Assembly (NCBI GenBank): GCA_026770025.1
Contig: JAMXDE010000006.1
Span: forward strand, 2,796,001-2,860,000
DNA from: Craspedostauros australis
Taxonomy: Eukaryota; Bacillariophyta; Bacillariophyceae; Mastogloiales; Achnanthaceae
Length of the DNA stretch: 64,000 nt
Direction: 5' to 3'
Shown here one piece after another: positions 46,476 through 52,739 of this stretch. A program made the position numbers and the translations under genes. The notes under the pieces are model-generated. The model saw only the letters and a program-made list of their open reading frames with translations, did no database searches and was not told where the DNA came from. Position 1 is the first letter of the stretch; the number at the start of each line of letters is the position of its first letter.

Positions 46476-48413
46476 CTCACACAACAGTCGACATACTCGA
46501 CCAAAGTTGACAATCTGTTTGGATGACGTTGGCGGAGCGTGGGTGCTGTTGCGATCCATGAAGTTTCAACCCGAACACACACAAAATGCCACCCAAATCG
46601 GATGAGCGCGTTGTTTGTTGTTGCGGTTTGGACAAACAACGGGCAGCTTTTTCGCTTGACACCACAACAACGACACACCATGTCGCCTCGCATCACATCA
46701 CAGTCCATGTATGCAATGCAGGGTACTCATGCAGTGATTGTAATATTTAAATATAAGCACTTATATCATCCCATTATGGTGTTTAGAGTAGACTTGTAAA
46801 TTTTTAAGCTCCTGGGACTTGTAAAAACAAAGTTATTGTGTTGTTGTAGCCTATGGCTAGAAACGTTAGGCATGCGGACGCAAAGGGGCAGCTGCAGCTC
46901 AAAATCTCCAGTCGTGCTTCTACTTGTGCCGAGTCGTGTCCACCATGGACACACTCACATTTCTCGCGGGTGGGGCGGTTGGCTGCAAAGCAATATCATG
47001 GACTGCGCAGTGGCAGTAGACATGATGAGGCTGCTGCTTCGTCTGGGCTTTGGATTGGTGGAAGACATGTAGAGAGCTGTAAATACGTTGGTTGGCAGGT
47101 TGCAGGCTCCATGCTATCCACAGGTGGTACACCCCAATGTAGCCTTTCCCCTCACCCTTATCTTGACCTGGACCCTGCCTTGTTCTCGGTTCTGCCGCTG
47201 TTCATGGCCCAAGAGGTTGACCCTACTCCATGTCCCAATCAGCACACACTGCCTTCCCTCCATATTCCCACTCTATTCTGCAGCCTCGTCCTCGCTTCAG
47301 GTCTATTCCCTGCCAGCGTGTTTGGACCTCCTCTCTGCTTGTCGTCGCCAACAGCCATTGTTGGATTCTGGCCGTTGTTCATCTGCTCTCCTTGTGGCTT
47401 CTTATTTCGGTGTCAATGAACCTGCAAGCACACGAATCACAACACGAGAAACAACAAGGAAAGCAACACTGCCGCCACCAGTTGCTTTCCGCACCGTGCC
47501 AACAGCTTGCAGATGACCATGACGTCCCTTGTCCAATGGGAGCAAAGCAGGTTGCACAGGACTTTGTATTAACAAACTAAGCTAAGTGTTACAGAATATT
47601 ATATTTTGCATTCCCTCGGATACATCACTGTGCTCCATTAAATTATATTGTGTTGTGTAGTATTCGCAAGTGTCGCTGTTGCTGTGGATGCACAGGGATG
47701 CTACCACCAAGGCTGTGGTGATTGACACAACACGCACAAAAGAAGGAAACGCCCAACCGAGCCAAATCACCAACAGCGTGAGAATCAAAGAGGACACCAT
47801 CCATAACGTTGGATACCAACGCAGTCTGACATCGACCGTCAATGACGTCATCATTTTCGTCCACGGTGAAGACAAGCCAGCCAGGTAGTTGTGTCGTTCA
47901 ATAAAGCTAAAAACATCTAACCCTAATGAACAACACGCCGTATCGTTATCTAAAAATATCACGATGTACGATATCAAATCCGCAGGATCGTACGTGCGGA
48001 CGCTGAATGGGGCCAAACGTGGAAAAAGACAACTGATCAAGCCTGTTCTTCGTTTTGCTGATTGGTATTGCGCTAGGCTACTCTAGAGAGAGTGTTGCTT
48101 GATGGTATTCCAAATCTGCTTGCAGCTCTTCTTCTTTGGCGATGCTTGATGGATGACAAGATAATGAATAAACTTCTGATACAATCATCAATGTATAATT
48201 GATCAGCACTAGCAGAAGTGAAGTACATGAATGGCACCATTGCTTGGTTATTTACTGCACGGTGCTCTACTCTCTCCGACCGAGTCAAGTGCACATTCAC
48301 AACATGATCGCGAGTTTGTCTGTTTCGTCCGGTGTGCCACCACGCGTTTTTCGTTCTTCGATTGTTTCGTCTGTCCGTTTCCCGCGAACTCTGCCGGATG
48401 TCTGGTGCCGAGA

Positions 48414-48555
48414 CTCCCGACATTCTCGACAATCACCACAACACGCCCGACATTCCCGACAACACACCCGACATTCCCGACAACACACCCGACATTCCCG
48501 ACAGAACTCCCGACATTCCCGACAAAGCGCCCGACATTCCCGACATTCCCGACAA
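48414..48555. repeat. Minisatellite of the same CCCGACATTCCCGACA-type unit (array 2)
   Basis: About seven units, same orientation as array 1 and some 2.0 kb away. Units alternate between CAACACAC, AGAACT and AAAGCG joints. Plus frame reads P-D-I-P-D-N-T, minus frames read C-R-E-C or V-G-N-V-G repeats. Confidence 0.9.
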
Positions 48556-48969
48556 TGACACATGACAGCATGAGTTTATCAATTTCATTGTGATGACGTA
48601 ATAAATATCAATAGACGCCGGAGCTATTTATTTGGTTTAAGGAAAGAGGTTTTTTATCGTGCCAGACATTTTGCCGCGTGTCCCAGCTGCTCTCAATCTT
48701 GAATACCTCTTTTGGTACTATCGTTAATCCAATACAAACCAAAAACGACACTTTCTTTGAACCTGGCATGTTGGCCAAGTTCGGAATTGAAGAGAGGTAT
48801 GTCCCACACATCGTGTTGAAACGGCCGGTATCTTCGCGATTCAATAAAAGATCGCAGAACATGTCACACAAATTTAGCACCCACAATGCGACCACAGACC
48901 AAGGAATGAGATTGATTGTATTGCCAAAGCATAACATATTATACCTACTGTCACTACATCACCAACACC

Positions 48970-51900
48970 ATGAGCAACATCAAGGGCGGAGGACGCGCTG
49001 TCCTGAAGGAGGAGACGGAGAATGCTCTGGTGGATCTGATCATGGAACTGAAAGTTGGACAGATCCCAACGAAGGAGCACGATCGCAAGCGCGAGCGGCG
49101 CAGGTTCCTCAAGAAGCTCGTCTCCGATCATGAGCAGCAGACGCTGCAGAGCAAGTACAACAGCAAGGACAACAGCAAGGCGAGCACGCAACCCGCCGCA
49201 TCCCAAAAGCGCGTCGTGACGGGCGATCCCAAGGCCAAGGTGCGCATCGAACTGACGCAGGCCAAGTACCACAGCAAGAAGGGGACGTTGCAGGATGGCG
49301 CGAAGAAGGTCATGGTGCTGCCACGGTCCACCACGATTGCGGACGTTCTGAAGCAGGCCAAGCAGAAACTGCGATTGAATGCCACACGATGTTTCGTCGT
49401 GGAGAAAAAGCAGGAGTTCGATCTGCTCCACGATCTCATGGGCGTTCAGGATGGCGCGACTGTCTACGTGGCCAAGGTGGCTGGTGGCAAGGCCATGAAA
49501 CCGGATTCGAAGAAGGGGTGCAGCAAGAAGGGAAAGGAGGGAAAAGATGACAACAAGGCTGCTGCTGATGATGATGATGCTGATGATGATGACAATGGAA
49601 CCGAGACGGCTGCGACGGCGATGCGTGACCCGCTGGAGTCGGTCAAGCAGGTCTACCGATACAAAGCGGTCACGCAACGCAAACGGAGACAGAAAGATCA
49701 TTCCAAGACGGCCACGTTCTTGTCCACCTACCCGACCATATCGGATCATTTCGAAAAGCTGCCCAAGCTCTCGGAACGACGCGCCAAGTTGCCGGCCGCC
49801 AAGTGTCGCGAGGAGGTGCTGGACATGGTCGACAAGCACAGGGTCGTCATCATTTGCGGTGCGACGGGCAGCGGTAAATCTACTAACGTCCCGCACTTCC
49901 TCTATGAGGGCATGCTCGCAAGCGGTAATGCCGATGCTGCCAGCATCATGGTCACGCAACCACGTCGCGTCGCGGCCACCTCCTTGGCGCAGCACGTGGC
50001 GAAGGAGATGAACAGTCCTTCGGGACCGGGCAAGCCGGGATCCACGGTGGGGTACCACGTTCGTCTCGATCGGGCCGTCACCTCCACCACCAAGCTGGTG
50101 TACTGCACCATCGGTATCCTCGTGCGCATGCTCGTGTGTCCGCAAGAGAACGCCGACGATGCGGCCTGTTCCCAGGACGGCGGTGACGTGCCGCCCCTTT
50201 CGCAGTACACCCACATCGTAATCGACGAGGTGCACGAGCGCGATCTCAACACCGACTTCTGCCTCACGATGCTGCGTACCGTGCTCGTGCGCAACCCGAC
50301 GATCCGAGTCATCCTCATGTCCGCCACGGCCTCCGCGAGCCTGTTCGTCAACTACTTTAGTCGTTTCAACCCGCCCATCATCAACATTCCGGGGCGCACG
50401 TTTCCCGTCGACATTCGATGGCTGGAGGATTGCAACAAGGTGACAGGGAGCCGGTATCTCAACCAAGGTGCAGGCAACCGTGGAAAGGGTGGCACCCAAG
50501 ACGAAACCGACGAGGACAGCCGACAGCAGCGAGAAGCATCCGCCGAACACTTCAAGCTGTCACCGCGCGCCTACTCCAAGATCGATTACGACTACGTTTC
50601 CAGATTGATCAGACAAATTGTTCGCCATCCGACGCATTACATGGACGGCTCCACAAGCCCGTCCTGCGGCATCCTCGTCTTTTTGCCTGGCAAGATGGAG
50701 ATTGAACAACTAGAAAAGATCTTGGGCAAAAAGCGTGAATTGCACATCCTCAAATTGCATTCCGCGATCTCAAGGCGTGATCAGCAAAAGGTCTTTGATC
50801 CTGCGCCCCACGGTGCGGCGAAGGTGGTGCTGGCGACGAACATTGCGGAGACGAGGTGAGTTGTGGAACTGTGCGTATCCTGTGGAGCGCGGCACTTGAT
50901 GTGCGTTTGCGTTGTGAACCTCCGTACGTGCGAGTACTACTCTCGAAATACTGCCTCACCCTCGTGTCTGCAAATGCTCATTTCCATTTTTTTCGCACTT
51001 GTCCTTCGCTGTGCCTCGAATACGACCTACACATGTAATCCATAGTCTGACGATCCCTGGTAAGTGGTATGCTTCGGTACATCATCCTTGAGATCGCGAT
51101 TGCGTTGCGATGCACGAAGGATCCGAATTCTGAGCATCGCGACCGCCCATCTTACCAATGCCATCTGCCCGCTTTGGACTTTTTCTTTGACCATACTCGT
51201 ACGTACTTCGACGGATGATATTCTCACCAACGATGCGTAGACATTACCCACGTGATCGACTCCGGCTACGTGAAAGAAAGCCGCTTCAATTCCAGCACCC
51301 GCATTCGAGAGCTGGTCACGGTGTGGACGAGCCTCGCATCCGCCAAGCAACGCTCTGGTCGTGCGGGGCGTACCCAACCGGGCGTCTGCTGGAGATTGTA
51401 CTCAGAAGAGTTCGCCACGACCGACATGTTGGCGCAGACCACACCAGAGATCATGCGCTCGCCGTTGGACGAACTGATGCTGCAAGTATGTCTGTTGTTC
51501 GAGCACCATCGTGACGGCGCCGGCAATGGAAGTACGAAGCCAAGTGGCTTGTCGCCATTCAAGTTCTTGCAGAAGGTTCCGGAACCGCCACCGAAAGGGC
51601 GGTTGCAAGAAGCCTGTCTGCATCTGTTGGAAGTTGGTGGAATCGCGGCTGTGCCATCGCCAGAAGGAGAAAACAACGAGCATCAGGAGCAGAAGCAGCC
51701 GCAGCAAGAGAAGAGCTCTGACAGTGTACTGTACCGGCTCACACCACTTGGTTATCATCTGTCGAGACTGCCGATGGATGCAAAGGTGGGGAAGGTGCTG
51801 ATCGTGGGATGCATCCTGCAGTGTCTGGAGCCGGCGCTGACCATCGCGGCGGAGCTGTCCCACGCCAAGTCCATCTTCTTCGGCAAATTCAGCAACCTGT

Positions 51901-52739
51901 CTTTCAAGGAATGGCAGCCATACGTCGTTGCTCGGGAGGTGCTGGTACGAGATGGGTTCGGTGGCGTGGGCTGGCCCGGCGGCACGGTGAAGGGCGATCT
52001 GATCGCTGTCATCGCCGCATACAATGCCTGGAAGGCCCGACGAGACAATCCGACGCAGCAACGAGCGTTCTGTGTCGAACACGCGCTGGATCAGACGGCG
52101 TTGCGAGAGATCGACAGACTGCGCGAGCAATTCCGTGGTGGACTGCAAGAAGCGGGATTCGTGACGCCATCCTGCAATGAAAACAGCAATGACGCCATGC
52201 TGACGAGCTGCTGCCTCGTGGCCGGCCTGTACCCCAACATCGCGACGCTGCTGCGACCGCGCAAGGGCAAGCTGGGCCAGAAGGGCGGGCGGCTGTTCAC
52301 GAAGGACGGCGACGAGGCCATGCCTAGCAGCTCCTCCTTCCAACGCAAGCGCGTGCACAGCGCCGCCGAGACTGGACGGGACGCGTACGCCGTGTACCAC
52401 GCCAAGCACCGCAGCCTGAACTCCGCCAGCTCCGCCCAGACCGTGTACCTGCAGGAAGTGAACTTCGTGTCGCGCTTCTCGCTGATGCTGTTCGGCGGCG
52501 ACATGCGCATCGATCGTAACGCGCTCGTGGTGGACGAATGGCTGAAATTCAAGTGCGGGGAGGACAACGACGTGGCGCGGTGCATCCTGATTCAGGAGTT
52601 GCGCAACGAGTTGGATCGCGTGCTCCTATCCCACATTGCCGGCGGCGGCGGTGCTGATGATGATGCTGGCGACGAAGGCAGAACAAAACGCAACAAGGCT
52701 GTCCTCGACCTCGTGCGGCGCATGTTGCAGGAGGAGTGA
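48970..52739 (+). CDS. DEAH-type RNA helicase (DHX29/DHX57-like) with a 14-nt microexon
   Basis: Exons 48970-50855, 51046-51059 and 51241-52739 give one frame of 1132 residues. The basic N-terminus contains a ubiquitin-like or TGS-like stretch (about 95-180, V-M-V-L-P-R-S-T-T-I-A-D-V) and an acidic Asp-run. The helicase core follows: motif I G-A-T-G-S-G-K-S-T near 297, Ia T-Q-P-R-R-V-A-A, motif II D-E-V-H-E-R (Val for the usual Ala), III S-A-T-A, L-V-F-L-P-G, motif V A-T-N-I-A-E-T, V-I-D-S-G and VI Q-R-S-G-R-A-G-R. HA2/winged-helix and OB-fold regions make up the C-terminus. It should unwind or remodel RNA or ribonucleoprotein, perhaps in translation or ribosome work. Joining exon 1 directly to exon 3 breaks the frame; the 14-nt microexon restores it and the family sequence across motif V. 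Confidence 0.92.
51046..51059 (+). other. 14-nt microexon of the DEAH helicase gene
   Basis: TCTGACGATCCCTG is preceded by CATAG and followed by GTAAGT. Exon 1 ends two bases into a codon (AG before GTGAGT at 50856) and exon 3 begins with the last two bases of a codon (AC after GTAG at 51240). Inserting exactly these 14 nt gives A-E-T-S-L-T-I-P-D-I-T-H-V-I-D-S-G, the motif V sequence expected of DEAH helicases. Without it the frame shifts and 5-6 conserved residues are missing. The flanking introns are 190 bp (50856-51045) and 181 bp (51060-51240). Confidence 0.9.

What the first reader, a model, noticed from the sequence alone, without database searches (positions are those of the whole stretch)
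50856..51240. A 14-nt microexon completes motif V of a DEAH helicase
Direct joining of the two large exons at canonical GT-AG sites breaks the frame and drops conserved residues between A-E-T and V-I-D-S-G. A 14-nt segment at 51046-51059, preceded by CATAG and followed by GTAAGT, fixes both phase (2 to 1) and protein sequence (S-L-T-I-P-D). Its precision is high because length, phase, both splice sites and family motif all agree. Exons this short are hard for annotation pipelines and for exon-definition splicing; skipping it would frameshift the helicase, giving a possible on/off switch.
Basis: partly seen in the sequence, partly recalled or inferred. Interest (0 to 1): 0.85.

Follow-up and report, generated by a model that had tools for sequence, protein, structure and literature searches.

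The report
Fourteen-base exon in diatom helicase gene
A diatom RNA-helicase gene appears to have a 14-base exon that must be spliced in to complete the enzyme's core, and two other helicase genes in the same genome have similarly tiny exons at or beside the same spot; the thing is of a known kind, and the proposed on/off switch is untested.

Summary
Three exons (48970-50855, 51046-51059, 51241-52739) with canonical splice sites give an open 1132-aa DExH helicase closest to DHX36/DHX29. Restoring the frame proves little: about seven frame-restoring segments are expected by chance in such a stretch. The encoded motif is the evidence: it appeared in 1 of 20,000 simulated stretches, and none of 25 in-frame single-intron models keeps it.

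New here: of 14 places encoding DEAH-type cores in this genome, 5 carry introns inside motif V. One paralogue has its own 21-nt microexon there and shares our downstream intron in position and phase; another shares that intron without a microexon. An SNF2-like helicase has a 22-nt microexon just after motif V. Best reading: a constitutive microexon left between two short introns, probably spliced by intron definition. New member of a known kind; the clustering of introns at motif V, seen in a sample partly chosen for truncated matches, is the more interesting lead.

The parts
48970..50855 (+). exon 1: start codon, N-terminal extension, helicase motifs up to ATNIAET of motif V; ends in phase 2 (AG|)
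   Evidence: open frame; Pfam DEAD and first part of Helicase_C
50856..51045 (+). intron 1, 190 nt, GTGAGT...CCATAG
   Evidence: sequence; in-frame stop directly after AETR if retained
51046..51059 (+). 14-nt microexon TCTGACGATCCCTG; with 2 nt on either side it encodes S-L-T-I-P-D of motif V
   Evidence: aligned with 13 paralogues
51060..51240 (+). intron 2, 181 nt, GTAAGT...GCGTAG; same position and phase (G|AC) as an intron in two paralogues
51241..52739 (+). exon 3: rest of motif V, motif VI (QRSGRAGR), HA2 region, C-terminal region, TGA stop
   Evidence: open frame; HA2_C

Best explanation
A constitutive 14-nt coding microexon in a DExH (DHX36/DHX29-type) RNA-helicase gene of a diatom. 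It is the coding scrap left between two short spliceosomal introns that both lie inside motif V. The downstream intron is probably the older one, because two paralogues share it in position and phase; the upstream one differs between the two microexon-bearing paralogues and was probably gained separately. Splicing most likely proceeds by intron definition, one intron at a time: removing either intron first fuses the 14 nt to a long exon and takes away any steric problem. Shown from sequence: anatomy, frame, motif, comparison with paralogues. Inferred: use in RNA, order of splicing, constitutive inclusion, age and separate origin of the introns.
For: Exact anatomy and open frame. Gap-free motif V alignment with 13 paralogues and with DHX36. 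Motif in 1 of 20,000 simulated stretches. None of 25 in-frame single-intron models (donors 50760-50930, acceptors 51100-51330) keeps motif V. Paralogue L043 has a 21-nt microexon, L042 and L043 share the G|AC intron, L042 lacks the upstream intron. A 22-nt microexon just after motif V in an SNF2-like gene. Flanking introns are short and their donors typical of the 16 resolved introns. A paper on worm and mouse cells proposes, in its own words speculatively, that exons too short for exon definition are spliced by intron definition aided by PRP-40 (PMC8378409, passages read); two FF-domain matches in one 651-aa open frame make a Prp40 candidate here.
Against: No RNA evidence of any kind; no orthologue from another species could be reached (a viral-contig scan confirmed no relative). 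The pyrimidine fraction before both 3' splice sites is modest (0.59), though ordinary for this genome (0.35-0.76). In the worm the need for PRP-40 lapses with unusually short flanking introns (an example of 49 nt is named); ours are 181-190 nt. Sharing of intron 2 could be parallel gain. Our gene is one of four long branches in the tree, so its place is unsure.
Confidence: 0.8

Rival explanations
1. Regulated on/off switch: the cell includes or skips the microexon according to conditions; skipped transcripts make a truncated, inactive helicase or are degraded.
For: 14 nt is not a multiple of 3; skipping gives a stop after 719 codons. Condition-dependent microexon switches exist, e.g. Xlr2 in Trichoderma virens (PMC11121469, abstract and outline seen).
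Against: Splice sites are typical of the genome. The paralogue's microexon is 21 nt, so skipping there would keep the frame; a frameshift switch is thus not shared by the two genes. Regulatory elements were not searched for.
Confidence: 0.1
2. The microexons of our gene and of L043 are one ancestral microexon whose upstream boundary slid by 7 nt, and L042 lost the upstream intron.
For: The three genes fall in one six-member group (98/95 support) and share the downstream intron exactly.
Against: The upstream sites differ in position and phase (G|AA of Glu against AG|T of Ser, 7 nt apart). The branching inside the group is unresolved, so this is not excluded.
Confidence: 0.2
3. Spurious exon: the gene has a single intron, or is decaying and lacks motif V.
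For: No transcript evidence; 25 in-frame single-intron models exist on paper.
Against: None of those 25 keeps motif V; both long exons are open throughout; the motif is found in 1 of 20,000 simulated stretches; a sister gene shows the same arrangement.
Confidence: 0.03

Closest known systems
Plant coding microexons of 1-15 nt (PMC8831610; start of the abstract and passages seen)
   Same: Very short internal coding exons, some not a multiple of 3 (sizes 1, 4, 8 and 14 are named in the passages), often missed by annotation; the helicase RECQ3 belongs to two of the clusters.
   Different: Those were found with RNA-seq and shown conserved across plants; this one is in a diatom DExH helicase, and its transcripts and orthologues are untested.
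Animal microexons that depend on PRP-40/PRPF40A (PMC8378409; passages seen)
   Same: The same mechanical problem, an exon too short for exon definition, and the proposed solution, intron definition.
   Different: Regulation and the part of Prp40 are not shown here; our flanking introns are 181-190 nt.
4-nt microexon of MPC1 (PMC9929638; start of the abstract seen in the listing)
   Same: Not a multiple of 3 and, by its abstract, constitutively included.
   Different: A mitochondrial pyruvate carrier gene, unrelated.
DHX36 and DHX29 RNA helicases
   Same: Best matches among solved structures over helicase core and C-terminal part.
   Different: The first 280 residues have no Pfam match at E 0.1; the exact subfamily was not settled.

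Membership tests
Coding microexon (30 nt or less) | internal exon of 30 nt or less flanked by AG and GT | tested here: met
   14 nt, CCATAG|...|GTAAGT
Coding microexon (30 nt or less) | needed for the reading frame and a conserved protein motif | tested here: met
Coding microexon (30 nt or less) | included in spliced transcripts | not testable with these tools
   no RNA data at hand
Coding microexon (30 nt or less) | conserved in orthologues of other species | tested here: inconclusive
   only paralogues of the same genome were reachable; the viral-contig scan confirmed no relative
Regulated microexon switch | inclusion changes with tissue or condition | not testable with these tools
   no RNA data at hand
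DExH (DEAH/RHA) helicase, DHX36/DHX29-like | motifs I, II (DEVH), III (SAT), V, VI (QRxGRxGR) and HA2 region in order | tested here: met
   motif names are recalled
DExH (DEAH/RHA) helicase, DHX36/DHX29-like | groups with RHA-like rather than spliceosomal-type members | tested here: inconclusive
   falls in a six-gene group (98/95) as one of four long branches in a tree without named reference sequences; best matches DHX36/DHX29

The most novel reading that the evidence does not exclude
Motif V of superfamily-2 helicases is a recurrent landing or retention site for introns in this diatom, across DEAH, SNF2-, RecQ-, DDX6- and Dicer-like genes, and microexons arise there repeatedly (14, 21 and 22 nt seen) whenever two introns hit the same short stretch. 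An intron at this spot puts the activity of several unrelated helicases under the control of splicing at once.
Probability: 0.25. Interest if true: 0.6.

Novelty: new member of a known kind. Interest (0 to 1): 0.36.

Why it matters
If used, it shows that ultra-short coding exons occur in diatom housekeeping genes, where standard annotation would lose or mis-model them. Within one genome there is a series of natural variants at the same codons (no intron, one intron, two introns with a 14-nt or a 21-nt exon between), which makes the birth of microexons by a second intron landing beside an older one testable. My searches of the held open-licence papers for 'microexon' with 'diatom', 'stramenopile', 'Phaeodactylum' and 'DEAH', and 'micro-exon' with 'diatom', listed 1, 2, 0, 6 and 1 papers; judged by titles and starts of abstracts, none is about diatom or DEAH-helicase microexons; none of these was opened.

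Tried and rejected
Frame restoration as proof: rejected, since about seven frame-restoring segments arise by chance. Single-intron models: 25 in-frame ones, none keeps motif V. A repeated 'introner' origin: the 701-nt piece with both introns matches only itself in the genome (that search skips simple repeats and very common words); the introns of the different genes were not compared with one another. A chaperonin gene with a 9-position profile gap looked like another microexon but reads as a plain 687-nt intron. Four truncated Helicase_C matches (L053, L054, L055, L057) show no intron in the 420 nt printed. Introns away from motif V exist too: L056, L061, L062, L063, so motif V is not the only site. 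No structure prediction was run.

Full report
Observation. The coordinates in the finding are exact. Exon 1 runs from ATG 48970 to 50855 and ends in phase 2 inside a serine codon; the 14-nt exon is 51046-51059; exon 3 starts at 51241 and ends with TGA at 52739. The joined frame has 1132 codons before the stop. Skipping gives a frameshift and a stop after 719 codons; retention stops immediately after A-E-T-R. The spliced protein matches DHX36 (E 1.2e-100) and DHX29 (6.4e-97) best among solved structures and aligns with DHX36 through motif V without a gap. Helicase_C grows from 27.6 bits (profile 17-76) with exon 1 alone to 59.7 bits (17-109 of 110) in the spliced protein.

Chance. AG|x|GT segments of up to 60 nt that restore the frame average 7.16 in 500 simulated stretches of the same length (385 nt) and dinucleotide habits; the real stretch has 7. 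Length and phase alone therefore prove little. What counts is the protein: of the seven, only the 14-nt one encodes six residues that all lie within the set seen in the 13 paralogues, and such a segment occurs in 1 of 20,000 simulated stretches (281 of 20,000 if 4 of 6 residues suffice). Of 25 in-frame single-intron models with donors in 50760-50930 and acceptors in 51100-51330, none keeps motif V.

Host. The species was not identified.

Paralogues. A search with 153 residues around motif V gave 18 matches, which I group by position into 14 places encoding DEAH-type cores. After splicing, all 14 align over motif V without a gap. In nine, motif V is uninterrupted. In five it carries introns: our gene (190 and 181 nt), L043 on contig C2 (244 and 243 nt), L042 on C5 (232 nt), L044 on C9 (332 nt) and L045 on C3 (264 nt). 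Relative to our upstream site the positions are -7 (L043), -4 (L044), 0 (ours), +2 (L045) and +14; the +14 site, phase 1 in an Asp codon, is shared by ours, L042 and L043. L043 thus has its own microexon, 21 nt, at the same place; L042 has the downstream intron only and carries E-T-S-V-T-I-P in its first exon. Our gene, L042 and L043 fall in one six-member group and L044 and L045 in the other, a split with 98/95 support; branching inside the groups is mostly unresolved, the bootstrap had not settled, and our gene is one of four long branches whose place is unsure.

Clustering. I count ten introns in the conserved cores of the 14 genes (from; one in L036 and one in L045 are inferred from frame breaks, not resolved to the base). 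Seven of the ten lie in this 21-nt stretch; counted as distinct positions, five of eight. Under uniform placement over about 1,290 nt (an approximate core length that I chose), five of eight within 21 nt occurred in 8 of 400,000 trials. This null ignores sequence preferences of intron insertion and was framed after seeing the data, so the figure is only a guide.

Other helicases. The genome has 92 Helicase_C matches, among them those of the DEAH genes. Of the rest I looked at 12 places chosen for truncated matches and three more later: 15 places that hold 17 of the 92 matches, so not an unbiased sample; other truncated matches, mostly in long open frames, were not looked at. Introns inside or directly at motif V were seen in seven of the 15: DDX6-like L046, SNF2-like L047, L048, L049 and L050, RecQ-like L051 and Dicer-like L052/L060; for L050 the donor is clear but no acceptor was identified in the piece. 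L048 has a 22-nt microexon just downstream of motif V, borne out by the next exon: G-I-N-L-V / E-A-N-K-V-I-I / F-D-V-E-W-N-P. Introns at other places were read in four (L056, L061, L062, L063) and none in four (L053, L054, L055, L057). The gene labels rest on recalled motifs. In the DEAD domain 37 matches were listed (36 of 98 candidates scored): 25 span nearly the whole profile, and 6 stop at positions 132-138, perhaps another recurrent intron site that I did not follow. Kinesins also show break points at like positions in several paralogues, so recurrence of intron positions is not peculiar to helicases; this weakens the hotspot reading.

Mechanism. The 16 introns that I resolved have donors GTAAGT (6), GTGAGT (5), GTACGT (3), GTGAGC and GTAAGC (1 each), acceptors CAG (12) or TAG (4) and lengths of 181-687 nt; our two are the shortest. 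Work in worm and mouse cells proposes, as a speculative model, that exons too short for exon definition are spliced by intron definition with the help of PRP-40, a need relieved by unusually short flanking introns (PMC8378409, passages); ours are short for this genome but not that short. Two FF-domain matches in one 651-aa open frame are a Prp40 candidate here. I infer constitutive inclusion by intron definition, one intron at a time. That motif V contacts RNA and couples it to ATP use is recalled, not tested.

Origin. The review PMC3488318 (passages) says that most intron positions shared by distant orthologues are ancestral, that parallel gain accounts for about 8% on average, and that introns are preferentially inserted or fixed at (A/C)AG|G sites. 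I read the shared G|AC intron as older and the two upstream introns as separate gains; sliding of one ancestral intron by 7 nt is the main rival.

Verdict. By sequence a real microexon and a new member of a known kind; use in RNA is untested, and so is the switch. The recurrence at motif V is the lead worth following.

Noticed in passing
own genome, many contigs, e.g. L002, L003: 88 matches to the silicon-transporter family PF03842; 27 of them score 800 bits or more over nearly the whole profile (2 of the 27 with one in-frame stop), which seems a large number of copies.
   Followed up: no
L043:4924-4944 (contig C2): A 21-nt microexon in motif V of a second DEAH-type helicase, sharing its downstream intron position with the window gene.
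   Followed up: yes
L048/L058 (contig C57, minus strand): A 22-nt microexon just after motif V of an SNF2-like helicase.
   Followed up: yes
G000:C7:677316-677693 minus: Two FF-domain matches in a 651-aa open frame: a candidate Prp40, the U1 component tied to microexon splicing in animals; other Prp40 domains were not checked.
   Followed up: no
own genome, DEAD-domain matches: 6 of 37 listed DEAD-domain matches stop at profile positions 132-138, perhaps another recurrent intron site.
   Followed up: no
window, roughly 48380-48560: Short tandem repeats of a CCCGACATTC-like unit upstream of the helicase gene, seen in the sequence and the translations; not measured.
   Followed up: no
window 48970-49809: The first 280 residues of the helicase have no Pfam match at E 0.1 and include an acidic low-complexity stretch.
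   Followed up: no
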